Below are positions 39,291-64,000 of a DNA stretch of 64,000 nucleotides, one piece after another. The position numbers and the translations under genes were made by a program. The notes below the pieces were generated by a model. The model saw only the letters and a list, made by a program, of their open reading frames with translations. It had not been told where the DNA came from and did no database searches. How positions within the stretch are numbered: position 1 is the first letter of the stretch; the number at the start of each line of letters is the position of its first letter. This stretch comes from Pseudovirgaria hyperparasitica (Eukaryota; Ascomycota; Dothideomycetes; Acrospermales; Acrospermaceae). The stretch spans positions 119,818-183,817 of the forward strand of contig NW_022985570.1 in NCBI RefSeq assembly GCF_010093815.1. The letters run 5' to 3'.

Positions 39291-39522
39291 AACTTCTCAC
39301 ACCCTAACGGACCAAACTAGTCAATTCGGGGTAAAATAGCGATTTACATATATTAAACAATAGAGTATACCAAGTATAACAACCTCCGACATACGTGCGT
39401 ACGTATAGCGTATAATACGCGACGATACTAACGTATAGAGATACTATATATATACACTCGAAGACTCTTCGATAACATGAGTATAGACTATATCTAATAA
39501 ACGCTAACACGCCGACCCCCTT

Positions 39523-39553
39523 TTATTAGTTAAGGGCTACCCTTAACTAATAA
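39523..39553. repeat. Perfect 14-bp-arm hairpin near LINE 5' end
   Basis: ttattagttaaggg / cccttaactaataa, perfect inverted arms with a 3-base loop (cta). The same hairpin recurs at 44,300-44,330. Confidence 0.9.
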
Positions 39554-42500
39554 CTATGGCGGCCTTAGGTATCGTAATACCCCGGTATACGCCGGATATA
39601 CCCCCACTAGTATAGTAGAAACGGCTATATAGCGAAATTAATATAGATAGCTAGATACCTATCTAAAATATAGGAACTAACTAAGGGTGTAAAGTACTAT
39701 AGATAATCTAGACTAAGGGGACCCCGAGAGGGGAGACCCTCCTAGATAAAATTAAATACTAGGTAATACGTGTAGAGAGGGACGCCGAGGAGGGAAAGAA
39801 GACCCTCCTTTATATATTCCGGGACCTTATCCGGAACCTAAGAGGAATTATAGAGGAAGAAAGGAAGTCGCTATAAGAGGAACCTAGTAGTAGGCTCGAC
39901 TAAATAGAAGCCAGCCTACGGAGAATCTAGGAAGAGCTATCCTAAGGTAAGCGCCCTAATATATAGGCTTAGATTATAGTAACACCCGGAGCCACCGTAC
40001 TAAGGACTACTAGGACCATAGATAGAGTATATAGTATATATATTATAATCTAGGATAAGGACACGCTGGCGTAGGTCTAATAGGCATCCCTAAAGGAAAT
40101 TATAAATAAGATTAATAAATAGAAAGGAATGTGGTTAAGCGTTATAGCTATAAAAGTTATACTAGGTGGAGTAGTACTTACTACTATAATGAATACTACG
40201 TAGTAAAACATCTCGCGAGATCCGAACGCGATAGGTAGTATCTTTCCCGGCGCGTCTATTAGAGTAGCTATATACCTAATTATAATATATATAGTACCTG
40301 TGTAGGGATAGGCTATCGGAGCGAAGGATATTACATGTATAGAATAATCTAACGCGCGAAAATACCCAGGGATTAAGATCGCGAAAGCGTGGTAGAAGAA
40401 CCTATAGGCGATTAAGACGACGGCGAAAAAATACTCTACTATAATTATAGAGCTCTAAGACCCCGCCCTCGTATAATATATTATATAGAAGGGATTCCTA
40501 ATAGAAGGAGAGCTTCTTATAGCCGAGCCATGGGATAGAGTATAGGTAATAATATAGTGCTTTAACTATTAAGGGTATAGATATACTATATAAAGGTACT
40601 TATAGAAGACTAAGTACGGATAGTACCATAGGGACCACACTATCTAGAAGTGCCCTTATAAACCGTAAAGAGACGGACTAAGAAATAGGGATATAGTATA
40701 GTATTTAAACTACGACTAGAAATACCCGTTATGGTCGTTAACGTGTATAAAACATAAATAGATTATAGAATATATTCGTACGATAAAAGTAAGAGGCGTA
40801 AGATAGTTATAGAATATAATACCTACTACGAGCCCTTCCTTTATAATACCTCTAACCTCCCCTCCGGAAGGTAGTTAGGCGGGATAGTAGACTATCCCGA
40901 AGACGATAGGACAACTAAAAGGTATAATTAAAGCCGCTACCGCGTGAGGATAGTCGCGCCTCCGAGAAATAAGTATATAGGTATATATACTCTCTAGTAT
41001 CTAATAAGGGACTAGAATATACTCCGAATTATATAGGTAAACGTATAATATAAAAGAGAGAACTAGGCGACGCTCCTCGAAGAGACCGGGGCTATAATAC
41101 TCGCTATCTAGGAACCCTATAAATACTACTAGACGAGTAAACCAACCATACACCCCGGATACTATACTATATACCCTCTAGGACTAGAAAGACGAGTCCT
41201 CTTCTACATTTATAGGTTAATACTACTCTTATTATAGTCGTATACCGAGCGCGATAACCTTAGGATAATACTATACCTATAAATAGATATAGGCCCCCTA
41301 TATATATATAACATATATAACTAATAATATATACTTATACTAGACGAGATACTCGAGGGTACTATAGAACTAGGGTAACATATCCTCCTAGAAGACTTTA
41401 ACCTCTACCACTAATAGTAGGGAGGCCTAGCTATGGTTAGGGAAGAACTTAGAGTAAGGGAACTACGTACCCGCTACCACGACTTCCTATACCTACTTAC
41501 ACCTATAGAATAAGTTATATAGAAAAAATATAAATAGGACGAAGACGGGTCTACGCTTAACCTTACCTTCGCTACGGAGTATATTAGTTACCGGATCTAA
41601 TACTACCGCCTAGGCTAGGTATAGACGGATTCCGACTATAAATATATAGAAACCGTAATAAACGTATATACCCCGAATAAATAACGGGGACAATAGATAT
41701 AGAAGGACACTAACTAGGAAAAGTACCTAAAGGACCTAGAATCGGCGATCCTAGATCCCTCTATAGTCGATGTATCTAACGACCTAGCCATAGACCAGGC
41801 CGTATAGATACTCCTATAAATATACTAGAATGCGAGAAATAAACACGTACTATACCGAATATACCGGCCCCCGGAAGTAAAGGGGATTCCTTAAGTATAG
41901 GAAAGTAGATAAGACGCCCGAAGGCTATATAGACGCGTATACTATATAAGAATACCCGAGTCGTAGGAAGAATAGAAGGAAGCGATATAATAACGCGATA
42001 AAGTCCTCCGTAACGAAAGGCGTAAATAGTAGCGTATAATTACTAGTTAATAGATATAATACGTAATAGGGCTATGGCGTATAGCGAAATAGGCTAAGGG
42101 CGTAGATACTCCGACACCTCTACCACTTATACCTCCCCTAATACATTAGGGGAGAATATACTCTACGGGCCTTAAGAAAACTAAGGCCCTACGGGAGGCT
42201 ATATTCCCTCTCCCGGAACTAGTAGACCTATTAGACGTTCACGGCGCCGAATATCTATACACGGTAGATATCCCTAAAGAAGTTATAGAGGAGAATATAC
42301 TTAATATTATTAAGATACTTCTAAATAATAAAGTACCTAGACTAGATGGAATTCTAAATCAATGCCTAAAAAGCACTATAAAAGCGACTCTACCGCTTAT
42401 TACTCGTATATTCTAAGTATGCGTCACGTAGGGGTACCACCCCTAGAGCTTCCGAGTCGCCTATACTATTATACTCCCGAAACTAGGAAAGAGCCCTAAC

Positions 42501-44299
42501 TCCCTAAAGGGATAGAGACTAATTACCCTTCTCTCCTATCTAGGTAAGATACTAGAGGCCATGATAGCGAAGAAGATAAGTACCGCGGTATAGGAATATA
42601 ATCTCCTCCCTCTAAACCAGAAGGTAAAGATAGATAGCTCCCTAATAATAGCTATCTAATATATTATCGAAGTCGTCTAGGCCGTATAGAAATAGGGACG
42701 GGTAGTATCGCTCCTCTCCCTCGATATAGCCGGAGCGTTTAATAAGGTAAACTATATAAGACTTATTTATAACCTCTAGATGAGACGAATACTAGAATAG
42801 ATTATACGCTTTATATAGTTATTTCTTATAGGAAGAATAACTTAGATATATATCTCTAGGTACTAGAGCGAATATAAAGAGACGGTATACGGCATCCTAT
42901 AAGGGAGCACCATCTCTCCGATTCTATTCCTCTTCTTTACGGTAGACCTTCTTTAAGGAATAAAGTATATAGAGGTAGTCGGATACGCCGATAATATATA
43001 CCTCCTAGCTATTAATAATAATACTAACCGAACGTGTAGACGACTAGAATAGAACTATAAGAGGTGCCTCTAGTAGGTAAAACGCTATAGAGTAAAGTTC
43101 GCCCCGGAGAAATACCAGCTCATACACTTTATTAATTATTAAGGGAAATAGGTAACTAGGGAAGGCGAACGACGCCCCTAAATCGACGTATTTAATAAAC
43201 TACTAGTATAAAGCATGCGCACGCTCGGAGTTATACTAGATAGCAAGCTTAAATAGGGACTATAAGTGGTATACACCGTCTCTAGGGCCCTCTAGGTAGA
43301 AGCCGCTATATAATAGATTATAGCCTCCACATAGGGAACCGCCTAGGATAAGGCACGCTAGCTATATATATCTATAGTACGACCCGCCTTCATGTACGGA
43401 CACGAGTACTAGTATACGGCCCTTATATAGACTAGGCGAATGAAGCTCGAATCCATATAGAATCGTATACTCCGTCTTATATTAGGCGTATATAAAGCTA
43501 CTAACACGGTACTACTACGACGCGAGATAGACGTTATAAGTATATATAACTTCTACTAGATATAGAGGGTAGTATACTTTACTAAATAATAAGCATAGGA
43601 ATGTATAGAAAACGTAGAATATACTTTCGCCGCGCTACGCGTATAAATCAGCATATATTACCGTGTACTCCTATATATAGGCCGGAATCGAATATAGTAT
43701 AGGTGCTTAATAGAAGCCGACTCTAGCTAAGTAGTATAAGAAGTCCGAGATAACCCGGACGCTCTTCTAGACTAGTAGAGCCTTTAAGAACTCGTGAAAA
43801 ACATACGGTCGTGGACTTAAGATAAGTAGAAAGAGGTACTCCGTGCCCACTAGACCTTCTAGTAGAATAGGTACCTAGAGTAGATTCGAGGGCTATAGAA
43901 GGAACCGAGTAAATAGATATATAAAGGCCTAACGAAAGCCTAAGTATCTATACTTATCTAAGCCCGAACGGGCGCCATAGGACTCCTATACTATATCTAT
44001 AAGAGAGGCGTTCCTAATACCTCCCTATAGTATAAGACGTGCGGCCGGAGAGGTATAATACACTACTATCTAGCTATATACCCTAACCTCTATATATAAC
44101 GGTAATAGCTTATCTATATCACGAAGACTTTAGATATTATATAATAGCTTAATAAGTACTCTAAGGACGTCTCCTAATAGATACTTATATATCTACTACT
44201 TCTCTAGTACTAGTAGACCCGGAAATATATACCGGAAGAGACCTAGTATACGCCGGTAGTAACCCGATATATACCGGAAGAACCCTAGGAGAACCCCGA

Positions 44300-44330
44300 T
44301 TATTAGTTAAGGGCAGCCCTTAACTAATAA
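44300..44330. repeat. Perfect 15-bp-arm hairpin near LINE 3' end
   Basis: ttattagttaagggc and its exact inverted complement with a single-base loop. It matches the hairpin at 39,523 in sequence and orientation, and the preceding bases are also similar (gaccccc / gaacccc). Confidence 0.92.
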
Positions 44331-44551
44331 CCTCCGTATCTACACGTGCTACCTAAGGGTAAAATAATGGTAATATAGGCTATAGGCTAATAGGCGTACT
44401 CTATAGCTATATACTTAAGATAAAATAGAGGTTTAACGAGATATAGTTATAGATATAAGGAAGTTTTTCTCTATAGGGTTTCTTCTTATATAGTGGCTTA
44501 GACTAGAGGAGGCATAGGCCTATAGAGTACTACTCTACCTAGTTATACAAT

Positions 44552-44572
44552 ATTATTATTATTATTATTATT
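44552..44572 (+). repeat. (ATT)7 tail at LINE 3' end
   Basis: Triplet run directly following the LINE 3' region and directly preceding the SNF2-type pseudogene. Confidence 0.85.
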
Positions 44573-46130
44573 ATAGTTTTATTCTATAGGCTCTCGAATA
44601 CCCTTTTAGTAGTATTATTATCAACGTAGTCGGGTAACTTATCTAGAGTATCTACCTCGATAGCCGCTAGAATATCTACTAGACTATTCGAGAGGGGCGT
44701 TACACTAACCCATATACTAAATATAAGGGTATTATATATCGTATATTTATACTATTTTATATCGGGGTTCTTTATAGAATAGAACTCGTCTACTATTAAT
44801 ATACCGAGGAATGCTACTTCGCGAGTTTAAGTGTTTTTAGTACCGAATTATTTCGCCCTCTTTACTCTTATAACTATATATCCCTTAAAAGATTTAAGAT
44901 ATTAGGGTTCCATACTCTAGACGGTACTATAGATTATATAGTTCTTTGCGTATCGCGACGGAAATTCGGTAGTAGCGGTCCTATTAATGGGAATTAACTA
45001 TACCCTAATAATACACTCCTCGTCGGTCTTGAATTTAGTAGTATTACTAATATCGACGCTATATTCCCATTCGGGGTATAGGCATCTCTTAGCTAAGTAT
45101 TATCGGTCTATATATGAGAATTATCGGATACTAGGGGCGTCGGTAAGGGTTTTCGAGTACGCTAGCCGTACTATTATCTTTATCGGGTTCCGTTTATTAA
45201 TTTAATCGGTGAACATGCTATCCGTATTATTATATATCTATTTAAAGCGCTACGGCTAATATACTATTAGAAGGGAACTTAGGTAGCATAGTATAAATGG
45301 TCCTTAAAGGCGGGGTATATAGACGAAATTATCGGTCTAGCTACACGGACATTTAATCGGATATAGAGATTATATCGGGCACTTCCTATCCATGCCCGAG
45401 TCTTAAGTCGGTTATAGGTAATTTCCTAGATTAAGTTCTATATTATCGCGTAGAAAGTCCTAATAAAACGCGAGGCGGATGAACGTTATAAGCACGATTA
45501 TCTTCCCTAGCCCTAGGCTATCTACTAAGATCTAGTACTTCTACGGACCCGCCTACTACTTAAATATAGTAACTACCGCGAGTAACTAGCCGGCCCATGG
45601 CCTATATAACCTACTTATACTAAAGGCTAGATATAGAGTAGGTATATAGCCGAACTTCTTTATTAGGTTATCTAGTATAAGTCTAAATATACTTATAGTA
45701 AGTAACCATATCTCTTCCGTATAATAAGAGATAGCTTAGACTACTTTATTAGAGTTATTAACGGCGAATATTCTATAGGTATATTAGTATAGTAGTATAT
45801 ATTCCTACTTACTTCTTAGTATAACTTACGCTTTCTATAGTTTTATACTAACATCGTTATCTACCGGAATTAAGTCCTCTATATCTAGCTTTACTTTATC
45901 TCTATTAGAGTTATTATCTATAGAAAGAATTTTAAAGTTAAGGCCGTTCGCTAATATACTATCTAATATATATCTACTATATAAATTATCTACTAACCCG
46001 AATAGTTCCTAGTTTTTACGTGTCTACCGGTCGACATCTAGTAGTATAATATATTCTAGTTTTGGGCGTTTTAGAGAATCGACTAGGTTTACTATATTAT
46101 CCGAGAGTATCCTCTTTATTTCTAGTAGCC

Positions 46131-46820
46131 GTAGATAAGTCTCGCTAGTATCTAGAGGCACGACGGCATTCGTGGGGGAATTATCTATATTAGTAATTAT
46201 AGGCGCATCTATCTTCGATACTACTCTAATATTAGTATCTAGGACTATATATATATATATATATCTAAGTATACTAGCTGCGTCGTCTTCTATTTTAGTA
46301 TCTTCTACGTTCTCTTTCTCCGTATGTTCCGACGGTAACTATAACTATATCTCTATGGCTAGTATATTTACGCGTAGATAAGCCTCGCTAGGCATAACGA
46401 CATTCATAGATGGATTATCTATATCGGTGGTTATAGCCGCACCTATCTTCGATACTACTCTAATATTAGTATCTAGGACCATGTATATATATATGTATCT
46501 AAGTATACTAGCTACGTCGTCTTCTATTTTAGTATCTTCCACGTTCTCTTTCTCTATATATTCTAGCGGTAACTATAACTATATCTCTATGGCTAGTATA
46601 TTTACGCGTAGATAAGCTTCGCTAGGCACGACGATATTTATAGGTAGATTATCTATGTCGGTAGTTATAGCCGTATCTATCTTCGACACTACTCTAATGT
46701 TAGTATCTAGGACTATATATATATATATATATCTAAGTATACTAGCTACGTCGTCTTCCATTTTAGTATCTTCTATATTATCTTTCTCCTTATGTTCTAG
46801 CGGTAACTATATCTACGTAC
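46131..46820 (-). repeat. Three tandem copies of a 234-243 bp coding repeat
   Basis: Units start at 46,131, 46,374 and 46,608. Periods are 243 and 234 bp, both multiples of three (78 codons plus 3 in the first). Minus-strand translation of each unit gives an acidic segment (VEDTKIEDDVASILRY), then VLDTNIRVVSKI and SEAYLRVNILAIEI. Copies differ mainly by transitions. Plus-strand frames here are shadows. Confidence 0.88.
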
Positions 46821-47405
46821 CTATACCTATAGTATCTATATCTAGTTTAGCCTCTATTATATCTATAGTTATAACCGTTGGTACTAACTTACTATTTATA
46901 GCCGCGATATGCTAATTAAATTCTCTAGTAACGGTTTCCTTAACTATTCTATAGAGTGTAGTAGTATCTATACCACTAGTTTTAAGCTCTATTACTACTT
47001 CTTTACTTACTATCTTAATAACAGTAGCCCTATATATATCATGACTTATTTCGGGTATTAGATATAGGCCTTAGAGGTACTAGATATAAGGTAGAAGGGC
47101 GCTAACGCTTAAGGCCTCCGCACGTCATATATACGTGTTACGGTTAGCCATTCTATAGCCGGTAGTTAAACTAGGATAGTCGTGACTCTTATTATACCTA
47201 TCTATTCCTATATATAACTTAGGCCATAGGTAGTAAGACGGCGTTAATGGCAATAAGATATGAAAACTAGATTTAGGCGGTAGGAGTTAAGTCGCTGCGT
47301 TTAGCGATTATAACGTAATTTCGATAAGTGCGGAGGAAGTAAAGTATATAAGTAAATATTTAATTATTAGAGTAGATCTTATACGATTATAGTCGTAGTA
47401 ATAAT

Positions 47406-47595
47406 ATAGCTAGTAGGACCGGGCGTATCCCGACGTGAACTAGGTAGACGCCGGCTTATACTAGTATCGTAACGTCTTAACCAAATATATACGCTATAGT
47501 TATATAGCTAGTAGAATCGGGTATATACCGATATATAGTAGGTAGAAGCCGTCTTACGTCGGATCGTATCGCCTTAGCCAAGTATATACGCCACT
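47406..47595. repeat. Diverged 98-bp tandem duplication
   Basis: atagctagtag[ga]a[ct]cggg...tatatacgc units begin at 47,406 and 47,504. They share the order of motifs gtaggtag.cgcc / gtcgta / cgcctta / ccaa.tatatacgc with many substitutions. Confidence 0.65.
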
Positions 47596-49444
47596 CTCAC
47601 TACCTCTAGCACCCTTTTTATTATTCTATTAGTCTTTAAAAGCGATATCCATATTCTCTATATCTAAGGTGCTTTTAAGGCTTTTAAAGTTACTATCTTT
47701 AGAGCTTATAGGTCGGTCTTACGACTTCCCGGGTGCCGATAGTAGTATATATAGTATTACTAGAGGAAGGGTTAAGTCGTTTAGGTGATACTATCCACTA
47801 CCTATAATACTATCTCTATAGGTATCTCTACCGTCATAGACGGTAGCTTTCTATTACTATTATTATACTAATTATAGCGAGTATGGCATTAGGGATAGAG
47901 GGGCGGATTTATTCGAGCGTAACCTATATATAGCCGTCTATACTATTATATATTAGTCGCTGGTTTATATTTTATTTTACTTCGGGTATACTATCTATAT
48001 CCTATCTAAGGCCGAGGAGTATTATACTATTACTATATTCTAGGACACATTCGATTACTAACTATAGGAGCCATCTAATATCTACCTCTAGTTCCGTTTT
48101 ACTTATTATATACTTAACTACTAGCACGATAGAATATATAGTAGTATAGCTCTAGTTAAGTGCCCTCCTAGTCTTCGTTGCGTATTAGACCCTAATTTAC
48201 TATATAAATACTACCGAATTAATACACGAAGCGTCGCTGTGGTCTTTCTACTAGTTAGACGTAGGTACTAGTATTTCGAGGAATGTATTATCGTCGAACC
48301 TAATTATAAATTTGATTTTTCTCGTAGTATATACGTTAGTAGGCTGTGGGACTACTACGAGTATAGGCTATAAGGTCGTGGTATACGAGAGCTATAAGGT
48401 CGTGATAGACAGGGGTTATAAGGTTATAGAATATAGGGCTATAATTACGCGCCTCTTCTTATACTCGGAGATAGTTTTTCTATAATATACGGTTTTCTAT
48501 ACTATAGTGCGTACCTAGTCGTAGATATAGTATAGCGCCTTTATCTCTATGTACTCTACTACTCTTTCCTATACTACTAGAAATTCGCCCGCTACCTTAT
48601 TAATAATCTTACGTACTCTTTTTACGCCGAGCTCGTTCTTAGTTCGACGCCCATAGTCTACGAGTAGAGTAGCCGTATATACTTCTATGTATAGCTGCCT
48701 TATACACGCCTCCATAGCTTCACGCTTTACTTATATATCTAGGCTTAAGATGCGAAGTAGTACTATGGTAATTACTATATTCGGATAGTTACTTTATTAT
48801 AGAATCGGATTCGATATGTTAATCGTATATAGTTAACATGTGTAGTTAATATAGTATTTATAATTTACGGACTAATTATATAGTATATATATAGTATATC
48901 GTAGGCGTAAGGAAGACGGAGGTATAGGTCGGACGATAGAGGTAGAAGCCGGAATAACGAGGTACCTACTAGGTGAACCTCGTTTATATCCTTATTATTC
49001 CTCGAACATACGTTTATAACACGTACGTAACTTAGCGTGGCGTGGTCGGGCGTATAGTTATTTACTTCATGTTGTCTAATACCCTTAATAGAATTAGATA
49101 GCCATGATTCTTATCTCGCAATATTATATCGTAGGCGACTACGTCTAGAACGGCATATGGCCACGTATATATAAGGTACCGCGTTAGTCTTATCCCATTT
49201 TATATTTATATACTTATCCCTAGGTACTCTCCGAGTATCGTAAGCCTATATTTTATTATATTCGAGTATCGTATCCTTCCATGCTTTTAAAGTACGCGAT
49301 ATTTAGGTTTACTATATCCTATATATATCATAGTTAAAGTCTAAAGGTGGAGGCTTTAATTAGGGCGTATGTTTTTTTATATTTTCTCTTTAGATAGTAA
49401 TATCTCCTAATATAAAGGCTAGAAGTAGTTTTAAAAGTATAAAG

Positions 49445-49462
49445 GGGATAACTAAAGGAAGC
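49445..49462. repeat. 18-bp motif shared with 54,490-54,507
   Basis: gggataactaaaggaagc is identical at both places and is preceded by a related A/T-rich stretch (agaagt..tttt). It lies just upstream of the SNF2-type pseudogene on the minus strand. The second copy lies upstream of the UPF1-type pseudogene. Confidence 0.7.
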
Positions 49463-49830
49463 CTACGTTATTAGGCCGGGGCTCACGGTAGATATAGAAT
49501 CGTGTTTATTTCTTAATTAGTGGGTACTAGTTAACGTGCCTAGTAGCGCCGTATTATCTAATAGCGCGTCCATACTAGAGTAGACGTAATAGAAATACCC
49601 TTAATAGGTCTTTAATAGAGCTAAACTATCTACCTAGTAGGATATCGTAACTATATCTAAAATAGATATAGAGGTGTACTTACTAAGAAGCCGTGACTAA
49701 GTAGCCCTAACACGTGAGTCTAATCGTATACTATTACTAATTAACTTCTATATCTTTATATATCGTAACACCGCCGTCTCGGTCGGTATCCTCGTAGTCT
49801 CTATCGTCCTAGCCGCTAGTAGTTACTTCA

Positions 49831-49920
49831 TTAGTAGTATTAGCTCTAGTAGTATTAGTTCTAGTAGTATTAGTTCTAGTAGTATTAGCTCTAGTAGTAT
49901 TAGCTCTAGTAGTATTAACT
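49831..49920 (-). repeat. Six-copy 15-bp tandem repeat (5 codons)
   Basis: agtagtattag[ct]tct repeated six times. On the minus strand in the zinc-knuckle frame it encodes a Thr/Asn/Arg pentapeptide array (ANTTR/TNTTR). Confidence 0.88.
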
Positions 49921-49999
49921 AGATTATTACTATTTATACGTGCTAGTAATTTAGTACGGCTAGAATAATAACGCCGAGTATAACCGGTAGTCCTATAAT

Positions 50000-50135
50000 T
50001 ATAGTAAAACGTACCTATAAGCGTCTTAGGTTTAGAGTAAATATTAGCTTTATAGCCGATGTTCTAATAGTTATTATATATAAGCGTCGACCCTCTTAGA
50101 CACTTAATAGACTTATATCCTTTAACATTATATTT
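50000..50135 (-). pseudogene. Three tandem CCHC zinc-knuckle relics
   Basis: In the helicase frame three segments have exact CX2CX4HX4C spacing, with most Cys/His codons converted to Tyr codons (YRKYNVKGYKSIKC is the first). Knuckles of this kind bind single-stranded nucleic acid. Confidence 0.72.
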
Positions 50136-53100
50136 ACGGTAGACTAGCGGCTTACGGGGCTTAGTACTATTAGTAGTTTATTAATCGCTTCGTTCTCCCC
50201 TCTCTCTAATACTAAGTATAGGGCGACCATATTAGAGATTAGGCATATTAGAGAGTAGAGGGAGGCCATCTAGGTCGGGGGTCGTGCACGTGTATATCGC
50301 ATGAATCTTAGAGTACTTATTCTATATCTCGCCGAGTACGCCGTCTAGGACTTTCTACCTCTTAAGAGATACGAAGTTAGTAATAATAACTATTATCTAT
50401 TTAGCGCGCGTAATAGTAACGATGTTACGGTTTACTTCCGAGAGGAAGCCGAAGCGATTAGTTTAGACCGGGTCGATAAGGACTATATCATTATTATGAC
50501 CCTAAGAACCGTCCTATGAACGCCATTAGATAAGCTTCTATACCGGCTTAGGTAGGGCATTAAATCGAGCTTTATCCGCTACGGTAAGTATAGTTAGAAG
50601 CGAGTTCCTAACCATCCCTTTAAATAGATCACGTTAGGCGGCGTATATAGAAATATAGAGCACGTAATTAAGTGCGACGCCATGACGGAAGAGCTCGGTA
50701 ATAATCCACTAAGTGAAACGCAATAAGTCTATATTATATATTAAGTTATTTACCGTGTACGCGTGATCCTAGTTAACGTTAGCGTATATAACGTGTTAAT
50801 AGCCGTAGATTCTAAATATTTATCGAACGGTCTCTACGAGTAGTATATCGATATTATTTATTATGCGGGGTGAGGTTATTAGCTCGCCCGAGTAAGTAAT
50901 TAGCGATATAATATTTATTATTCTAGAAACTAAGCGTTCTAACTCGGTAAGGCGAGTGGTCGGGAAACTATATTATATCTAGCGCTTCATGAAGGAGATC
51001 CTCTAGTTCACGGCCTATATATTAGTACTATCACGCTAGTAGGTGTCGAGCTAGCGTAGGTCGCCGACGTAAATAAATGTCGGTTACCATTCTATAGTAG
51101 TGTAATTAACGATAATCCCGAGTATATTACTTTTAAGAATACACGTAGCCTCTTCTATTACAACTAAAATCGGATATATATTACGGGCTACCTTGGCGAT
51201 ATTTATAATATATAGGGTCTCTATATAAATCTAGGCGTAGATAGTAACTAGGTCCTAGGTAGCGAGGTATAGCTCGTTCATCCTATTATACTCCTCCTTA
51301 GGCATGTCCTTATTACGAGTATAACATTTATAGATAGCGTATAATAGCTAAGCCGTTTCTTTCTCGAAATTCTTAGGAATCCATTTATATTAGTATCGAG
51401 ATTTAATAAGTCCGACGACCTCAAGCGTAATATAACCGGTATATAGTTTCTATAGACGAGCACGGGGATCCGTGCTATATTCTAATAGTCGTTTACTATA
51501 GTCGGCCTAGGCTTACGCGAGGATAGTACCGCCTATTATATTATTCTAGGTTGGCCCGATAAGAGGGTCGCCGCGACGAGATAGTCTAGCTATAGTAAAG
51601 AAAACCTCTTAATTAACGGCTTCGGGGTATCTTCGAAGAACGACCGGTATCTTTAGAGACTTATAGCGAGTAAATATATTACTTATATATTTATATGCTT
51701 TTCTTATAGCGTCGTCGTAGGTTTCGTTAGTTAGACCGATAATAACATATATATATATTCTATATATTTAGGTGGAACCTAGCGTAGGGAGGTGCGCTGT
51801 CACATCGCTAGATGGGATGACTACCTTAGTAGTATAAGCGATAATAGGAGTACCGTTTATTTCGTTAATTAGAAGTATAGCTAGTAGTAGATAAAGCTAT
51901 AAATGGCTCTTCCTAGCTCCTCTATAGCCGTAAAGTAGAAACTAAGCCCTAAGTACGTCCGTCGCCTATATATAGACATACTATTATTAGGGAGATAGTT
52001 CCGAACGTATAATATCCTAGAGATCATAGAATCTTTTATAATCTTTAACGTAGCGGTTATAGTTAACGGGTTAAAGATTTAGGTAGTTATTACTAAGTAT
52101 TAGATCCTATACGGAGGGTAGTAAAGGGGATAGAATACTAGAGTAGACTTTAGATAATATTAGGAGTGTGTATATATCGACGACGGGGCTAGTAATAGAA
52201 CCTTCGTCGCTAATAATATCGTAACTATATTCTATATTCGTGTCCTTATTATTATCTAGGGATATAGATAATTTAGAAAGAGTAATGAGGGTATCCTAAG
52301 GCTCTATACTATAATCTAGAATCTCGTTATTAGGGTTAGGGGACCTATATATTAGAGATATAGACACCGAGTCCATGATAACATTAAGGACTATCGTATT
52401 AAACGCATCCTAAGCGGCGTGGTCGTCTACGCCGCCGTCTCTAGGAGCTTACACGGTATAGTAGGTTAGTTTCTAGCACGTATTAATACGTTACTTAGTA
52501 AGCTTATCGTAGGTTTATACGCTAACTAAAGCCGGAACGTCCGTAAACCCTATAAGCGTGGTAAGGGACGACCCGATTATACTTAAACTAGTATTACTAG
52601 TCCGAATAAAATATTTAGGACGAGCTCGAGTTATATTAGTAACCGTATCTATTAATATAATCGGTACCTTAGATACTTTAGAAGGACGCCTAACCTTATT
52701 AAAGACTTTTAGAGCGAGGTATTTAAATAGAAGGACGCCTAGGCGAAATCGAAGGACTTTAAAGTGGTACGCGTCGTCATTATAATCCTTTAAATCCACT
52801 TTAAGGTACCCACGACTACCTAGTTCTATATAATGGAATCCTTTCGCATCGATAGGACAGACGATAGCTAAGAGCGCCCGAGTAACACCTAAGAGCTAGA
52901 TATACCCGATAGTAACGTCTTAGAATTAGGATAATAGAAGATCCGCCTATTCGTCTTATAAGATACTTATAGCGATATATATTAGGTAGTTAAATTTCTT
53001 ATTAAATGACTCGCGGTAGGGAATAGAGATCTAGGGCCAAGTGTCCGGCCTACTTATTATACCGTATTATATATAGGGAGTAGTAACTTCTATATACCAT

Positions 53101-53909
53101 GAATTAATTAGATCGCTCTCTAGTTTAAGCTTATTATTAAAGCCGGTAAGATCTATAGGGTTATGTAGCGGTAGCAAGATATAAACTATAGTATAAGCAT
53201 CTAGATCTTCGAAGAATTACTTTACTCGTTCGTATATTATATTAGGTCCGACATACGACGGGATAGTAAAACCTATACTAAGAAGCTCGCTAGCTATAAG
53301 TTTAATAATCTAAAAGTCGCAAGGGTCTTCGTAGAGGCCGGTGTTAATATATAGTATATTAGCTTTATCCGCTTCGCTTATAATAAGATTAGGAAGTTTA
53401 GAAAAATACTCGATAAAGTCATCTACTTACTTAACCTTAAAGATCTATACCATAGAGTAGTCGGACGATAGAAGGATGTTAGTACGATTAAAGCGGAGTA
53501 AGCTTATTAAGGATACTAATTTCCCTTTATTAATCTATTGGAAGTAAGTATATAACTTAATCTAAGAGCGGTACTTAGAGAATTCAAGGAATCTATATAT
53601 ATAACTAATTAACTCTTCGAAGCCGTGACCTTTACTATAAGCCTTAAATACTACTAGCTTAAGCTCGGCTTGAGTTTTCGCTTATTCCTACTTAAGTCTA
53701 TCTATTTCTCTACTAATACCATAGACATTCCTAAAGGTTAACTATAGATCGCCCTATATAAGAGAGATCTAATAGATGGCGTAAGTAGAAACGGGAGCCT
53801 TACTACTTTAGACCTTCTTAAGTTTATACTCGTTATTAGAACGGTAGTTACCGGTAAGTATACTAAAGACGAGTGGTTTATTATCGGTCGAGACGGTAGT
53901 CGTATCGTA

Positions 53910-54241
53910 AGCTTCGACTTAAGTATAAGGCTCGGCTTAAATATAAGGCTCGGCTTAAACGTAAGGCTCGGCTTAAATATAAGGATCGGCTTAAACGTAA
54001 GGATTAGCTTAAACGTAAGGCTCGACTTAAACGTGAGGATCGGCTTAAACGTAAGGCTCGGCTTAAATATAAGGATTGGCTTAAGCGTAAGGCTCGGCTT
54101 AAACGTAAGGATCGGCTTAAGCGTAAGGCTTAACTTAAACGTAAGGCTCGGCTTAAACGTAAGGCTCGACTTAAGTATAAGGCTCGACTTAAACGTAAGG
54201 CTTAACTTAAACATGAGACTCGGCTTGAACGTAAGGCTCAA
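53910..54241 (-). repeat. 18-bp tandem repeat, about 18 copies (6 codons)
   Basis: The unit aaggctcggcttaaacgt is repeated without phase loss. In the minus-strand helicase frame it encodes V-Q/stop-A/V-E/K-P-Y units, where TAA replaces CAA. A continuous open frame also exists in another minus phase (Thr-Phe-Lys-Pro-Ser-Leu), but only because the repeat length is a multiple of three. Confidence 0.92.
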
Positions 54242-54489
54242 TTACGTCGAGCGTAGACTAGTTCTAAATATCGCCGAATATAACGAGTTCTTAATCCATA
54301 TTATAAACTATAAATATAACCTCGTTAACTATTATATAGAATAGACCTTAAGAGTTAATAGAGTCGAGTTCGACGTAGCGTTTATATATAGTTATAATTA
54401 ACACGGAATAAAGTACAGAAGATAAGATTTAGGTTTAAAAACCAAGATAAGTAGAGGAAAGGTTTATAGAAGTTTTCTTTTATAACATA

Positions 54490-54507
54490 GGGATAACTAA
54501 AGGAAGC
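54490..54507. repeat. 18-bp motif shared with 49,445-49,462
   Basis: Identical gggataactaaaggaagc, located just upstream of the UPF1-type pseudogene on the minus strand. Confidence 0.7.
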
Positions 54508-54509
54508 TA

Positions 54510-57500
54510 AGATTAACGTAGGCTAAAGTAATAGTAGCCTAAGTAGTGTATAAAGTGGGGTAGTATACTACTATTATATGAGTCTAGTAGCTCGCCGACC
54601 GAGTATATAGTACGTTATAGAAGGCTATCGAATTAGGGCTTAGATAAATATAGGTATAAATGGATAGTATTATATGAAAGTTTAACCGTCCGATATACTA
54701 ACGCCATAGACGCCGAGTCTATCTTCTAAATTCTACGGTAACTATCTCTTCTAGATAGTAAGATATTACTAGCCATGCCTTACCTATTCTATTCATAGTA
54801 GAGACACTATATGTCCGTTAGTATACTAGCGCACGTATCTAACTACCGCTTAAATATAACTTGCCTTATACTATAATACGTACTATTACGCTAATATTAT
54901 ACTAATATTCATGGGTTCGTGTCTATAAACTCCTCTCCCGTAATATTAAAACCGGTAACATTATCTAGCGATAGGACTATATAAGAAGGAGGCGGACTTA
55001 GTATGTCTAGTTATATATAGACTTCTACTATCGCCTTAATAACCACTACGCCGGTAGGCGCTTCCTCCCCGGCCCTAAATGGTATATAATATTAGACTTT
55101 TATACGTTCGCTCGAACTCTCGAGTGTACCGGTATTATATATTAATTCGTAAGGCGATTAGGTTATAATCGCTAGCATATTAATATTAACGGGTAGAGTA
55201 GGCGGGACGGTAGCGCTCGACTCTCCTAATATAACGTTAGCTAGCTAATAATATAATGGGTAAATATACTAGTCGCGTCGTTATTAACATCTATCGTTTA
55301 AGTAGGTAAAGCGTTAACTACGCCTATATTAAGTGGACTAGGGCGTACCTATATACTATTAATAAAAGACCTAAATCTAGTAAGGTATCCGCCGTATATA
55401 TAATACTATACGTAACTAATAACCGAAAACCTAAGATATATAAATAGTATTATATCCACGGAAGAGCGACGGTATTATACCGGTATATACTAGATATACC
55501 GGCATACATCGGTATACACTACTTAGTAGTCGTAATATATTGATATATGCCGATATCTATCGGCGTATATATATCTTAAGCTTACCTACGCGCGCTAGAC
55601 GGATAAATCCCGCTACTATACTCATAGCGCGACGTTCCTATATAGTTAGATTATAGTTAACACGTTATAGTAGGCTTCTAAATATACCGTTTATATCGCC
55701 TACGCGGAAAACCACCCAATCTAGTCCTAAGCCTAGTGCCTATTTAATAGCCTACTATAATACCTAGTCTAAACTATCCTTACGAAGGATTATATTACTC
55801 GACTTACTCGGTAGAATCGGGTACTCTAGGTAGACGCGACCATGCCTATAACCGTCTACGTCCCCTAGTATATCTATAGACGAGCTAATAAATTCTAATA
55901 GTTTATTTATACTAAGACCTACTATATCGCGTATTTTTATAGCCTTAATATTTAACGGCGTTATACTATTCTATATAGCCGTTATTAGTACTAGGGTAAC
56001 CCGAGTACGATCGCGGATAAGGACTATAGATATACGTATATAACACGGCGGCACGGCTACCTTAGAAGATGTAGATACTAGTAGTCCGACGGTCGAATAA
56101 CTAGGTTAGCTAGATATATTAGGCGGGTTCGTAGGGTATATATAATATTATAATAGCTTATCTAGCCCGGGGCATCGTTTTAACATATATAATGGTATTT
56201 AGCTAACCGCCGCTAGTTACGCGTAAATACTAAGAATATAGTATTAAGTTAATATATAGCATCTACCCGTGAAATAGTATAACTACCGTTAATAAATATA
56301 CATTTATCCGCGACCGTCTATAGGCAACGCTCTCGTTTTATATGGTGGTCCTTTACTTCCTTACTACGTAGGTTTAGTAATAGGCTAGTAAATTCCTCCT
56401 AAATTAACTCTTCCATGTGTACCCGAAGTTTCTACCTGTTAGACGCTCTAAATATATAAAGTAGGTCGAGACTCGCTTCTACTCGGCTATTTATTCGCGG
56501 CTAGCCGGACGTAGCTATAGATAGACGGAATAGAGAATAGTATATATTACTAGGGTGATGGAGAGACGAGATATATATACTATATAATAGGTATAGATAT
56601 AACACGTACGTTACGGCTACATTAACGCGAGTAGTCTATATAGTTATCGGTAATAACTCGTTAATTTAATAGAGGCGGGGAAACATACGGCCGGCATCCG
56701 ATCCCGCACTAATATAGGGCACGTGAAATAACGACGTTAAATATATAATACTCTATACACAACGTTAAGTTTACCGGGCGATAGCCCTACTCCGGTAATA
56801 CCGTCTATATACGATAAAAGAGTAGTATAGTATATAGGTATAATAGGATAGTAGGCCGTCTTTACGACTACATGGATCTACCGCTAAAGAGAAATACTAT
56901 AAGATCTAGTATATACTATTATAAACATACTATTATCTATTATATTTAGGCATGCTAACTCGGCGTACGCGAAATATAGATAACCGCTAACCCGTCGTGG
57001 TTCGCTATTATTCGAAGCCTAACGAGTAGAACCGAGGAATAAATAGTAGAAATAGTTAGATATAAGAGTTTTTAGCGATTAGGGGATGGTCTAGGTAGCT
57101 CGAGGGAAGGATAGAGGACCTCCGCAAAGCATGTGCTTATGTAATATTAATATGCGAATATTTAAGAGAAGTATGTAATGCTAACTATTATCTCTATAAT
57201 AGGTCGTTATCGATTAGTACTATTATTAAGAAGAGATAGACGAGCGTAATGATAAATAATCGTAGTAGCGAACCCTTATATTAAACACGAATAATACAAC
57301 GCATTAGTATGGTATATTTATCTATTATAAGAACGTACATCTAGTTACCGTAGTTTCTAACGGTCTATATAAGAACGTATATATTAATAATATAGTAATA
57401 TAAGTCTAACTATACTTATAAGGCCAGGGAAAGAATAAAGGAAGAGGAGGAGAAACATTAGGAGGAGGAGATACTTAAGGAAGACGTTTCCCTAGTAAGA

Positions 57501-58200
57501 GCGTTATATACCCGGTATATACTTATTTATACTTATTTACATAGACTCGTTATATACCCGGCACTTATTCATTAATAGACTCGTTACGTACCTAATACTT
57601 ACTTAACCATAGACTCGTTATATGCCCGGCATCTAACGAGATATAAACGCGAATAATAAAAACATTAGAATCGGGTACGAGCTAGGTCTAGTAGGCCTAG
57701 AGATATAGTTCGGATTTTAGGGTATTAATATATATAATCTATCTATATTAGGTTAAGACTATCCGTATCTAGTTCTACCCGTGAACGAGGATCCTTTAAG
57801 TTCTATATGCCCCTTTTAGAGGCGTGGAGTTTTTATACTAGCTAGTAATTATTAGATAATAAGGAGGTGCATCCCTAGATACTCCTTAGCTAAAATTATA
57901 GATAGTTATTAAATATAAGCCTTTTATAGAACTAATCGTAATAAACCACGATTATTCCTTAGAGATATCCTAGTATAGGATATAACTATCGAGTGCTACT
58001 ATGTATAAACCATAACTTCCGGTATATACTAGTATATACCGGCATACTACGGTAGACGGCGGTAGATAGTGATAGACTTACGACACGCGCCCGTGTTTTA
58101 ACACTACGGTTACGTTTCGTCTATTTATAGCCTAGAAGTCTAGATTATATACCTCGTTATAGATCCCCTAATTACTATACGTGTTTAACTAGAATAAACT
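54510..58200. other. RIP-degraded sequence of unknown identity with short repeats
   Basis: Minus-strand frames near 55,600-55,900 give protein-like stretches (for example LGLGLDWVVFR, 55,710-55,742) but no family was recognised. Palindrome-rich segments containing ccggtatatacta and tataccggcata occur at about 55,478-55,512 and 58,019-58,054. A purine-rich patch is at 57,437-57,475. A 34-bp minisatellite is listed separately. Confidence 0.45.
57504..57640. repeat. 34-bp minisatellite, three to four copies
   Basis: atagactcgttatatacccggcacttattcatta-type units start at 57,541, 57,575 and 57,609 (period 34). A weaker upstream copy (gcgttatatacccggtatatactt) starts near 57,508. Confidence 0.8.
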
Positions 58201-61200
58201 ATCTATAACTAACTAATATAATATAATCTATATAGGGCGTAGGACATGCTCTAGCTCGTAGACACGGAACCTATCCATTATACGAGTCTTATTACTAGAC
58301 CTTTAACCCGCTATACGTAATAGTATAAGGCTACTAATAGTATTAACATTACCTCTACCTAAGTTATTAAGTAGTTTAACTAACGCATCTAGGAATCGCG
58401 CCGCTATACTACTAGTTATATTAATACTCTCTATATTATATACCTCTAGAAACATACGGACTTTACTAACCCGCTTCCCATTAAGGTGGTTACTACCCTT
58501 ATTAAACTCCTATACTATTATATAATCCTCCCTAGCCTTACTACTCTTTTACTAGTTACGGGCATACCTTACCCGAATTAGATTAAAGGCCTCTATAGAT
58601 ATATCTCTATCTAGTTATATCGGTACGTATATAGTCTTATATATATAGATAGGAAGGACCCGTGCCTACGAAGGGTCCTTTTTAATACGTTCGATATTCG
58701 TACCTTTTAATATATTATCCCCGATAAGCCGATTACGATAGTTACGTATAAAGGGTATAACCGTATTAAGTAATATAAAACTACTACTATACACGTTATA
58801 GAGGTCGCCGACGGTAGTCTAGTAGGACGTAGATAGTCCATGGCTCTATAAGACGTAGAGTGTATATTCACTCCGGCGTGGCTCCTTTAGAATACACCGC
58901 TAGCCGACTAGCTTACGTGTATTATCGAGCTACTCTAGGCTAGGGGCTACTAATATACTAGTACTAGCCGCCACCTCTATACTACTAGAGATTTTAGTAT
59001 TTATCGTACGTATATCTACTACTAGTATCTACTATAGAAACGTCTCCCTCTTATTTAAACCTTAATATAATTCCTTTACTACGATATAAGATCGCTCTAG
59101 TAGCTCTACTAATATTAGATATAACGAACTATGGTATTTAATAGCATTAACTAGGTACGATAATGCATGGAACTTCGGAAAGTTAAAATGATTATCCTCC
59201 GATTTATCTCTATAATATAGTATAAACTAGTATTTCAGGTCGTCTAAGCGTAATATAGCCTCTTCTAAGTATACTAGTGTCTACGTATTATGCGTATAGT
59301 ACGCCGCTAACATATATATATTAATAACCGCCCGTACTACGCTTAGGAAGTATTAATTATAACATAGGAGCGGTTTAAAGGCGACTATAAACACTACTAG
59401 TATACGCTTAAATATCGCCCCCGTCTATTATATTACTAAAGTTATACACGTGAGTGGGTTATAACGACCGAATGCCCTAATAGACGCGAATCGCTTATCG
59501 ATCACCTTCTTTACTCGTTCTATAGGGGGTATACCGGTAAATATACCCTTTAACTTATATCCTATACACTCTTAATTAATAACATACGAGACTATCCAAT
59601 TAAACGTATGTTCTAATATACCCTTATATAGTTAATATAGAATATCCGGAGCGACCGCGCGGTATATATTAACTCTAGTAAGTAACTAGGCAAAATTATC
59701 TAATGGCTCTATCCATCTACTAGAATACCGACTCTTAACCGATTAGCGAATATAATAGCCCTATGCTACTAGCGCGAAAGACGTTAACGAAAACGATAAG
59801 ATACTAGGTATACTCGTCCTATTATCTATCTTACTACTAGTATACTCGCTACTGTAGCTATTAGTTATTAACTCGCGACGTACACGGTAAACCTATTTCT
59901 ATAATAACGAGTGTATACGGAACTCCTATATACTAGTAATAGCTTCTCGTAGATACTATCGTCTGTTACTAGGGACTATATATATTAGACATGTATACTA
60001 ATGGGATACACCCGTGATAAGCACCTACTCCGGAAAATCTATAATATATAAAGCTAAACGCGGATAGTACTTACGCAAGCCGCCATCGGCATATAATACT
60101 AATACTCTAGTACTCTATATAGCCTATAACACTATATAATAATTAGTATAGTTAACGACTCTATCATGGGCGGATATACGGGCTAGAACTTTACTTATAA
60201 CCTAATAGAATATAAAGCGATTCGCTACCGTTTCTAGCTTAACTACTAGTAATAGAGTAAGTAGTAGAAATAATAGTAGACTCCTAGATAAGCGGACGTT
60301 TAGTGGCAGATTATAAATAGATAGGTAGACTAGCTATACTACTCTATTACTACTATGGTTAGTAAGGTTTATCTTATCCGAAGATAAAATAATAGGGATA
60401 ATAACGGTACTATCCGGAATAGTAGCGTGTATATCCTACTAACCATCTACTATATAGACTTTACTATATACCCGGTCGCCTAAACTAGTAAATTATCGTA
60501 CTAGCTTAAACACGAGCTTACTAGTAAACGGTCGGTATCTAAGGAGGAATTCCACTAACGTAAGCGGATCTCTATACTAGTATTTAACTATAGTAGTACT
60601 AAATATATTATAGCTACGCTACTAACTTTTATACGGTATCCCTTTAGGGTAGTATAATAACTACTTACGTACGATATTAGATTTTAGTATAAAAAGGTCG
60701 GGGGGTATAGCGGAAGTCTATTTAAGGATAGTAGTTAATTCATCGTATACTATATTCGAAATACCGAACCGATTCATCTATATTATAAGGCGCTCTATAA
60801 ACTTACTATTGAATTAACCGAATCGGGCCTACTAAATTAGTTACTACTATAAACCTAGACTATATACACTCACGTCGGACGGATTATCACGTCTACTCTA
60901 GTCCACTATAATATATATACCACTCTCCTCTTCGAACGTTTTTATTAAATATATAGTACTAGACGCCCTCGTCGCCATGGATATAGCATTTCTACTATAT
61001 ATATTAGACTAATATACTAAATCGGCACCATGGCTACTAGTAACGCCGTCTATAGATTCCAGGTCTAAAATAGAATTAGAGAAAATAGTAGTATCTTTAC
61101 ATAGGGTAATATTAGTAGTAGAAGTACCCAATTCTATAGGCTCGGACTCCTAATTAACGCTTGACGGCTAAACACTAATAGAGCGAACTAAAGAGTTCTA

Positions 61201-61450
61201 TCGACTAATATAACTACGAGTACTAAAGCCGCGCCGTAACCCGGTCGATGGTAGTAGCCACGGGCCTAATGGTTATAATAATAATAGCGATACGGCAAGC
61301 CGTGCTCGTCTATACGGTTCCAAGTTATAGTACCTACAGATTATATAGTATATACTACTAATCTTTCTACTATAGTATTAGTAAGAGACTACGGCCCGTA
61401 GCATCTCGAGGTATAGTTACTATAAAGGAAAAATACCATAGTATAATTAT
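58200..61450 (-). pseudogene. RIP-inactivated Plavaka-like (CACTA-related) DNA transposase
   Basis: Minus-strand frame with RIP stops matches the fungal Plavaka transposase layout. At about 60,900-61,000 there is a segment around TFEEESGIYIIVD. At about 60,340-60,420 is the hallmark IPIILSSDKINLT followed by an [WQ]-L-V-Y-L-S-I-[GY]-N-L-P-L stretch (SDKT-S...WPVYLTIGN-type). At about 60,245-60,300 is NVRLSRSLLLFLLLTLL. Further C-terminal at about 59,100-59,300 is NFPKFHALSY, and at about 58,840-58,900 the ILKEPRRSEYTLYVL block. Both ends are estimates and I did not find terminal inverted repeats. The element moves by cut-and-paste in its active form. Confidence 0.72.
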
Positions 61451-64000
61451 TAGTAGATAGTAATGATATAGTATACGGTGGATATTCTAGGCGTATACTA
61501 GAAGAAGTTAGGTGTAAGCCCGTCGAAAGCCCGATATATATCTACTAACCCCCGACTTCTACCTAGCTCTTAGCCCCTTAATTTCTATACACGCTTACTT
61601 AAAATTATTAATAATAACGCGTAAGCATCACGCGTCTATAAAAACACTATATTAGTCTACGCCTAAACCTTTATCGTGTCTACTAGCTAGTTATTATCCC
61701 GCTATCTAATATTATTACCTAGTAGGTTACCGACCCATTACTAATGAAAATATCTACTAATCTCTTATATATCTTCTCTATAGGACCTCTAATACAGAAG
61801 ACGGTTAAGGGACTATCTAGCTACCGTGGCGGTAACACTAATAGAAGATAATCTAGTAACTATAGTAAACTAAACGGGATAGGTAAACGAAGATGCGATA
61901 TAACGTAGACACGTGTTAGCATTAATAATAGGGACTTATATAATAGCTATCGACATAAAAAACGTATATATATACACCTAGCTTATCTCGACGCGTTCGT
62001 TTATCTACTAATAACCTAGTAGTCTAGGTATACCGGCAGCGAATATGGTAGTAACGCCCTATATAGCTTAGACGTCACGGTAACATCCTACCGTAATAGT
62101 AACCGGGGATACAACGGCCTTACGTCCTCTCCTCCACTATATTAGCTATCTAGCTTAATAGAAGAAGGTAGAGAAATAGTAGTAGAGAGGGAACCAACTA
62201 TCCGTGAAAAGAGGCGGTCCTATAGAGATAGTCTCTAGCCTTACGAACGAGACTAGTACCTTACGATAATAGAGATTTTAATTACTATAACGTTTTTAGG
62301 CCGGTTACTACCGGTATTTAATCGCCTTAATATATGGCTAGATAGTAGCCTAGATAGTTTTAGGATACTAGTATAATCGGCCTAGACAGCCGCCGGAGAT
62401 ATTAATCTTAGTAGCTACTATCTTAATTATAATTTATAAAACACACCTCCCGCCTATATTATTACGCTAGTAAAGGAAGATATAATAGACTTCCGTTACT
62501 AACTCCTCTCTAGAGTTAGATAGATAGTATCCGAATACTAGGACTAGGAGATAGCCGAGAAGAGAAAAGCTAGTATAAGTAACCTAATACGTAATAACGC
62601 GTATATAGGAGTAAAGGTATATTACTTACGTCGTATTAGACGTGTTACTAATTATTAGTATAATACTAGCGTAACTCGGAAAATGTTTATAGGGCTAGTA
62701 GTAATTAAGGCTCTAAAGTTAGTTCTACTATAGTCCCTAAGATTTCTTAGATTAAAGGAGCACTATAGTAGTATATTCCGACCGATCCCACCATCCACGA
62801 TTACCATTATATATATTATAATAAGGCATGCCCTTAACGAATATAGTAGCGGGCGGGCGCCGAACTCGTCCTTCGGTCGCTATAGATTCGCACGCTCTCT
62901 ACTAATACTAGGTATATATATATACCTTTATCTAATTGCGTGCTAAATTATATAGAGGAATAGCGAGCGCTAAGCCTAACATAGTCGAACTAGGCGCCCT
63001 ACCGCATCAACTACATTTAAAAATCGCTAATAGTATTAGTATTTATAGTACTAACACTAATTAACCCGGATACTATATATATAAACCCATATAAAGATAA
63101 CCTAGATAACTTCTCTAAAGTAGATGTAGATAACTTAGACGAGAGTGAGGAGTCTAAGCTATCGGGTAATATAAGTATATACTAAAGTTATAGAGGCTAT
63201 ATAGATACTAACTACTACGAAAAGAATAAGTCGGATACTCTAAACCAGTTGGATAAGTACCTCGAATTATCTCATGCGCCATTAGATATAGGTAAGAGTT
63301 CTATACCACTAGTAGTGGCTACGGATAAGATTATACCATCTCGGGTATTAAGTATAGACCCACTCTAAGTAACCGCGGAAATAGTAAATGATAGTATATA
63401 TACGTATAGTATAAATAAGTCTATTACTAACTTATTATCCCTAGTTATAGCTACCTTAACTAGTAGTCTATCTACCCCGACCGATACTTAAATTAAAATG
63501 AAGTTAGATGGTGGCGGACGTTTAAGTCGGGTCTTTAACCTATATATAAAGAGTATATACTTTTAAGAGAAGTCGGATATTAGTATATAGCTAGGGAACT
63601 ATATAGACTACCACGAGGCCGAATAGATAATATAAGAGAGAATAAAAATAGTAACTAGAAATATAGAGGGAAGTGTCTAGTGGGAGAAAAGGTTATTAAA
63701 GGTAGTTCTAGATAAGGACACCTTTTAATAGATAAAGGACACCACCTAAAGGTAGAAGAAAGGAAGGTCTACTATATTTCATTATAGCTATATAGTCAGA
63801 GAGAGCTTAGAATAGTACCATTTAATTTAAGTTCCTAGTCTAATTAATTTTTAACCTCTACTCTCTATTATATACTATCTTTCTAGTATTAAATTTAAAG
63901 ACTATAATTAAATATACTAAAGATATAATTTAGAATAATAAGATATATAGAGTTATAGAGATACTTTAGATAAAGATATTACTTTAGAAAAGAGACTTCT
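61450..64000. other. RIP-degraded sequence, plus-strand coding relics of unknown family
   Basis: Around 62,480-63,020 the plus strand gives a nearly open, basic reading frame (for example EIAEKRKASISNLIRNNAYI, 62,556-62,615). From about 63,060 to 63,860 an acidic, Ser/Asp-rich plus-strand frame is followed by KRLLKVVLDKDTF and STIFHYSYIVRESLE. They may be the 5' part of another element continuing past the window. No family recognised. Confidence 0.45.

What the first reader, a model, noticed from the sequence alone, without database searches (positions are those of the whole stretch)
44576..54507. Head-to-tail pair of giant RIP-killed helicase genes sharing an upstream motif: candidate undescribed element
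Seen: two minus-strand decayed genes, one SNF2-type and one UPF1/NAM7-type with CCHC knuckles, lie head to tail. Each has the identical 18-bp gggataactaaaggaagc just upstream and both carry in-frame coding repeats. Known: RIP acts on duplicated DNA, so these were multicopy. Inference: they could be partner genes of one large mobile or subtelomeric unit not matching LTR, LINE, Helitron or Starship layouts.
Basis: partly seen in the sequence, partly recalled or inferred. Interest (0 to 1): 0.85.

Follow-up and report, generated by a model that had tools for sequence, protein, structure and literature searches.

The report
RIP-killed 22-kb Plavaka transposon with helicases
The two ruined helicase genes are part of a 22-kilobase cut-and-paste jumping gene of a known fungal kind (Plavaka) that spread through this genome and was then mutated to death; carrying two large helicase genes is the unusual part.

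Summary
Two decayed minus-strand genes lie head to tail and recur together: 25 seamless SNF2/UPF1 junctions in this genome. They belong to one mobile unit that reaches beyond the given coordinates. Two copies with both ends read span 22,112 and 22,108 bp (the second includes a 440-bp N run). They have 26-bp terminal inverted repeats and 2-bp target duplications in 3 of 3 copies tested (TA, CG, TA). The joined flanks of one copy match a dispersed repeat across the junction in 39 of 40 listed rows: an empty site. The transposase core (59,962-60,597, outside the finding) is Plavaka (PF18759, E 2e-26). Ends CAT[T/C]A..T[A/G]ATG with 2-bp duplications fit published PlavakaB (PMC12730594, passages read). 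So it is a known transposon kind with unusual contents: a UPF1/NAM7-type helicase (AAA_12, E 7e-10) with RIP-masked CCHC knuckles, a SNF2-type protein (motif evidence only) and a DUF6532 protein; no TET/JBP was found. All 22 transposase loci found carry stops. The exact 18-mer at both sites is not conserved across copies. The window copy stops at ~44,571 against a LINE. What the helicases do is inferred, not shown.

The parts
44556..64000 (-). Window's copy of the 22-kb Plavaka-type transposon (gene strand minus); about 2 kb of its 3' side is missing and the outer ~0.49 kb of its 5' side lies past the window end in an N stretch
   Evidence: Collinear matches; ends located
59962..60597 (-). Plavaka transposase core (PF18759). 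By eye the same frame looks coding from about 61.6 to 58.2 kb
   Evidence: (E 2e-26); frame printed (wider range by eye, motifs recalled)
62446..62874 (+). DUF6532 (PF20149) protein fragment, facing the 5' end of the element
   Evidence: E 5e-7, above Pfam cut-off
49944..54488 (-). UPF1/NAM7-type SF1 helicase gene in one frame; AAA_12 at 50990-50376
   Evidence: outer limits by eye
49955..50153 (-). Three CCHC-type zinc knuckles masked by RIP (C and H read as Y)
   Evidence: inference from C/H residues that survive in some copies
53906..54241 (-). 18-bp (6-residue) tandem repeats in the UPF1 frame, number varies between copies
44556..49443 (-). SNF2-type gene, first part; motif I near 45516, motif II near 44790; L025 and L026 continue, with a motif-VI-like stretch about 1 kb further in L026
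   Evidence: Pfam not significant
46130..46815 (-). In-frame ~234-243-bp repeats in the SNF2-type gene
49445..49462 (+). 18-mer upstream of the SNF2-type gene
54490..54507 (+). 18-mer upstream of the UPF1-type gene; not exact in the 13 other copies aligned
44168..44577 (+). Not part of the element: 3' end of a LINE with an (ATT)n tail, against which the window copy stops

Best explanation
The two helicase genes are internal genes of a ~22.1-kb cut-and-paste DNA transposon of the Plavaka kind (the clade that holds CACTA/EnSpm, Mirage, Chapaev and Transib). A Plavaka transposase would bind the 26-bp inverted ends, excise the whole unit and insert it with a 2-bp stagger; insertion as one unit is shown by the ends, the duplications and an empty site, the enzyme step is inferred from the family. 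The element spread as near-identical copies and RIP then mutated every copy found. The UPF1-type and SNF2-type helicases, which share an upstream motif, most likely act as accessory factors that help the element work in, or escape, silent chromatin or RNA-based silencing. That last step is inference.
For: Whole unit: copies with both ends read span 22,112 bp (C26), 22,108 bp (C14, with a 440-bp N run) and 29,963 bp (C11, with an ~8-kb interruption in the UPF1 block); inverted ends 25/26 identical in C26 and C11, 24/26 in C14; 2-bp duplications in 3 of 3 copies; empty site in 39 of 40 listed rows, all of equal length to the query. Transposase: PF18759 E 2e-26; 22 loci in the genome, 21 over the cut-off. 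Linkage: 20 of 22 transposase loci have the UPF1 block downstream in the same orientation within 30 kb and 19 of 22 the SNF2 block within 45 kb; 25 seamless SNF2/UPF1 junctions (all 45 rows and 51 of the 63 rows used, the 12 short rows left out). Copies nearly identical but for transitions: 11 of 1310 variable columns are transversions over 49.4-56 kb, 4 of 564 over 46.9-49.4 kb. Ends and duplication length agree with published PlavakaB.
Against: No intact copy was found, so catalytic residues and gene ends could not be read off a working gene. The SNF2 call rests on motifs. No tree was made, so PlavakaA, PlavakaB and EnSpm were told apart by ends and Pfam only. The accessory role has no direct test. 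The more diverged copies turned out not to be an older subfamily, so there is no evidence of long selection on the helicases. Two of 22 transposase loci lack the UPF1 block and three the SNF2 block. In 44.6-46.1 kb the alignment shows 204 transversions in 583 variable columns; some rows there run into other sequence, but this was not sorted out.
Confidence: 0.9

Rival explanations
1. The helicases are captured passengers with no role in the element's life; the Plavaka transposase moves whatever lies between the ends.
For: No functional test. All copies could stem from one recent founder, since they differ almost only by transitions. The few transversions show no codon-position bias (5, 7, 7; too few to judge).
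Against: Both genes sit in the same place and orientation relative to the transposase at most loci, share an upstream motif, and length differences in the UPF1 gene keep the frame in the less changed copies.
Confidence: 0.35
2. A duplicated host gene cluster, as described for the X3X3R8 repeat of Stagonospora nodorum (Rad5/SNF2-like helicases plus a ubiquitin-conjugating enzyme, RIP-degraded), and not a transposon.
For: Similar flavour: RIP-degraded multicopy SNF2-like helicase repeats (PMC3017866, passages read).
Against: Inverted ends, 2-bp duplications, empty site and a transposase. No ubiquitin-conjugating domain at E up to 1 in the frames scanned.
Confidence: 0.03
3. Two separate elements lying side by side by chance or nested.
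For: Each gene has its own upstream motif.
Against: 25 seamless junctions and common outer ends.
Confidence: 0.02
4. A Starship or other giant element with a tyrosine recombinase.
For: Size and extra genes.
Against: 26-bp inverted ends, a Plavaka transposase, and no other recombinase domain at E up to 1 in six frames of 44.6-64 kb; heavy RIP could hide one.
Confidence: 0.02

Closest known systems
PlavakaB DNA transposons (Kojima 2025, PMC12730594; first part and passages read)
   Same: Plavaka transposase domain; ends 5'-CATCA..TGATG-3' (here CATTA/CATCA..TAATG/TGATG, the T being what RIP makes of CA); 2-bp target duplications
   Different: Here 22 kb with two helicases and DUF6532, no TET/JBP found, in a genome with heavy RIP; the passages read describe Plavaka families reconstructed from Agaricomycotina
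Plavaka elements of Agaricus, Marasmius and Rhizophagus (PMC7473861, PMC8290104, PMC11075540; passages read)
   Same: Same transposase domain; placed with CACTA/CMC/EnSpm in the Rhizophagus paper
   Different: No helicase gene inside a Plavaka element is mentioned in the passages seen
KDZ (Kyakuja-Dileera-Zisupton) and other TET+ fungal transposons
   Same: Fungal DNA transposons with an accessory gene thought to counter silencing
   Different: Unrelated transposase; Zisupton makes 8-bp duplications
X3X3R8 repeat of Stagonospora nodorum (PMC3017866, passages read)
   Same: RIP-degraded multicopy repeat with SNF2/Rad5-like helicases
   Different: Described there as an endogenous gene cluster with a Rad6-like enzyme; no UPF1-type gene or transposase in the passages seen
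AcademH / KolobokH (named in PMC10799480 passages; the original paper is not held)
   Same: DNA transposons that carry a helicase
   Different: Other superfamilies; helicase domains there are DEAD and Helicase_C

Membership tests
Plavaka / PlavakaB | Plavaka transposase domain | tested here: met
   PF18759 E 2e-26 in the window; 22 loci in the genome, 21 over the cut-off. The 14 control genomes with 0 hits are prokaryotes and say little
Plavaka / PlavakaB | Ends 5'-CATCA..TGATG-3' | tested here: met
Plavaka / PlavakaB | 2- or 3-bp target duplication | tested here: met
   2 bp in 3 of 3 copies and by the empty site of one copy
Plavaka / PlavakaB | Transposase falls in the PlavakaB clade of a tree | not tested
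   No reference sequences at hand; all copies broken
CMC/CMCT clade | C(2)C and H(3-4)H between second D and E | tested here: inconclusive
   Stretches YTCLIYI and HALSY in the window frame look like RIP-changed forms by eye; copy L055 is changed too
TET+ Plavaka | TET/JBP dioxygenase gene | tested here: not met
   No such Pfam domain at E up to 1 in six frames of 44.6-64 kb; the outermost ~2.5 kb was not scanned in full and RIP could hide one
Helitron | No target duplication and no inverted ends (recalled) | tested here: not met
   Inverted ends and duplications present
Starship | DUF3435 tyrosine-recombinase captain (recalled) | tested here: not met
   Not seen at E up to 1; only the window copy was scanned
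SNF2 family | SNF2 profile match | tested here: inconclusive
   Pfam E 0.063 in L026, none in the window or L025; motif chain in L026 only of two copies run, 0 of 2000 random
UPF1-type SF1 helicase | AAA_12 helicase domain | tested here: met
   E 7e-10, above the curated cut-off

The most novel reading that the evidence does not exclude
The element carries a dedicated two-helicase counter-silencing module: a chromatin remodeller (SNF2) and a ZNFX1/NAM7-like helicase with zinc knuckles, under a shared upstream signal. It would fill the place that the TET/JBP dioxygenase holds in other Plavaka and KDZ elements.
Probability: 0.18. Interest if true: 0.75.

Novelty: new variant of a known kind. Interest (0 to 1): 0.52.

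Why it matters
The papers I saw describe Plavaka elements from mushrooms and from an arbuscular mycorrhizal fungus. A 22-kb version that multiplied in a RIP-active genome and carries two large helicases widens what these transposons encode, and gives exact ends and an empty site for finding intact relatives. It also suggests that accessory genes other than TET/JBP may help transposons deal with fungal silencing.

Tried and rejected
Rejected: the low boundary at 44,571 as an element end (other copies continue at least 1.5 kb further: 20 rows, the query's own included, cover nearly all of that stretch; the (ATT)n tail belongs to a LINE); an older subfamily with conserved helicases (copies L020-L023 differ from the main group by 4-6 transversions each in 3.7 kb); stop-pattern mapping of frames (stops saturated in all copies); a profile search for the SNF2 C-terminal part (no hit at E up to 0.1); a comparison with the intact SNF2-family ORF of the window (too weak to say); a plus-strand scan of 44.6-54.5 kb (one hit, DNAJC11, E 0.041, below its cut-off, taken as chance); a paper that describes a SNF2+UPF1 transposon (none noticed in the listings; only listings and the passages named were seen).

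Full report
The window lies in an unnamed 35-Mb genome (G000:C22:119818-183817) with no relatives held. RIP indices show that about 29-64 kb is heavily RIP-mutated, which points to a filamentous ascomycete; the species was not determined.

The region of the finding is a repeat. Queries with its two halves gave 45 and 63 matching pieces (the tool calls such counts lower bounds). Twenty-five pairs of pieces join seamlessly at the SNF2/UPF1 junction (using all 45 and 51 of 63 rows). The adjoining 9.6 kb (54.4-64 kb) gave 17 rows; besides the window itself, 6 of 16 cover the whole query from its first base to at least base 9542. The helicase pair is thus part of a longer unit.

High end. Twelve loci were fetched for this end. 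L042 is nearly all N; of the other 11, seven (L040, L041, L043, L044, L048, L049, L051) show a shared terminus ending ...GCGC[T/C]GTATCTTTCCTAATG, with RIP-type single-base changes in some, after which the flanks differ; L045, L046 and L047 run into N and L050 did not hold it. Low end. The window copy stops at about 44,571. A query of 1,664 bp from the C9 copy, which starts in the known part and runs 1.5 kb past it, is covered all or nearly all in 20 rows, its own included; five of them are only 76-77% identical. L052, L053 and L054 show the same terminus inverted. The inverted repeats are 26 bp with one difference in C26 and C11 and two in C14.

Target duplications and empty site. For the three copies with both ends read, the two bases outside the ends are TA/TA, CG/CG and TA/TA. 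The flanks of the C26 copy, joined with one TA, match a dispersed repeat: 39 of 40 listed rows cross the junction and all 40 have the same length as the matched query, so no net gap; the fortieth is the occupied site itself (40 of 123 candidates were scored). The 22.1-kb unit therefore inserted as a whole. Only this one copy was tested in this way.

Genes. With X at stops, Pfam gives Plavaka (E 2e-26), DUF6532 (E 5e-7) and AAA_12 (E 7e-10). SNF2 is not significant by Pfam. Its motifs I-II-III are in order in L026 but not in L025, and in 0 of 2000 random sequences. The one solved-structure match below E 1 is CHD1 at E 0.95, aligned over those motifs. The best solved-structure match of the UPF1-type protein is ZNFX1, E 0.006. 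No other Pfam family reached E 1 in 54.4-64 kb. On the plus strand of 44.6-54.5 kb one family was seen, DNAJC11 at E 0.041, below its cut-off.

Linkage. One search lists 25 Plavaka rows; three are second pieces of other rows, which leaves 22 loci (21 over the cut-off). Twenty of 22 have the UPF1 block downstream within 30 kb in the same orientation and 19 of 22 the SNF2 block within 45 kb. All 25 rows contain stop codons. In the AAA_12 search, 10 of 10 rows in element copies contain stops, and 13 of the 14 other rows contain none.

The 18-mer. All 16 exact sites in the genome lie in element copies, 14 at the SNF2 site and 2 at the UPF1 site. In the copies aligned, 0 of 13 others have the exact 18-mer at the UPF1 site and 10 of 13 at the SNF2 site. 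Both sites share at least 16 of 18 bases; whether they were identical before RIP cannot be told. A role as promoter or 5' UTR element is a guess.

History. Among 9 copies over 49.4-56 kb, 1299 of 1310 variable columns are transitions; over 46.9-49.4 kb, 560 of 564 in 12 copies. Four more changed copies (L020-L023) differ from the main group by only 4-6 transversions in 3.7 kb. Over 44.6-46.1 kb 204 of 583 variable columns are transversions; some rows leave the element there, but I did not separate them. Most of the evidence says that the copies were almost identical before RIP: a burst followed by mutation. It also means that I have no evidence of long-term selection on the helicases.

Known kinds. 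In Kojima 2025 (PMC12730594; first part and found passages read) PlavakaB families make 2- or 3-bp duplications and end in CATCA..TGATG, and Plavaka belongs with EnSpm in the CMCT clade. The element fits. That paper also reports Puccinia EnSpm families whose transposases resemble Plavaka, with CAC..GTG ends and 3-bp duplications, which are not the ends here. A Ganoderma paper lists PF18759 and PF20149 (DUF6532) in one row of extra domains (PMC8955403, one passage), which fits their presence together here. Eleven papers in the library hold the word Plavaka (10 listed). I saw passages of five of them and no account there of helicase genes inside such an element; the helicases in the Agaricus paper are subtelomeric RecQ and DEAH genes.

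Verdict: a new, large, helicase-bearing variant of a known transposon kind, with every copy found broken by RIP. How the transposase works follows from its family; the role of the helicases is open.

Noticed in passing
window 39000-44577: RIP-mutated LINE on the plus strand (RVT_1 at 42504-43145, E 3e-17) with an (ATT)n tail; its last 410 bp also lie in another element copy (L016), with about 16 bp of the element duplicated.
   Followed up: partly
window 39261-41327; L039 6546-8614: A ~2.07-kb repeat with about 40 matches of 92-93% identity scored (417 candidates in the first look).
   Followed up: no
L040 299-488: 18-bp tandem array (GTATAAACGGGACGTTCG) just inside the element's 5' end; several copies have N runs at or near it.
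   Followed up: partly
L048 372-626: The element's 5' terminal sequence occurs twice in a row in this locus.
   Followed up: no
G000 C7:1633427, C34:77917, C17:38751, C9:1464758, C30:110113: The 3' flank of the SNF2-type gene is only 76-77% identical in these five rows, against 86-95% in the other near-full ones.
   Followed up: no
window 18835-22698, minus: Intact 1287-residue SNF2-family ORF with a RING-like stretch, in the normal-GC part of the window; not shown to be related to the element's gene.
   Followed up: partly
G000:C4:1060362-1072392 and C15:836212-839224: Distant matches (65-76%) to the UPF1-type block, possibly an older related element or gene.
   Followed up: no
G000:C26:65301-65408 and 87520-87565: The repeat into which the C26 copy inserted is itself present at 39 or more other places.
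   Followed up: no
window 4153-6066 and 12156-13331: ORFs that by eye look like a dynamin-type GTPase and a fungal peroxidase (recognised from memory, not searched).
   Followed up: no
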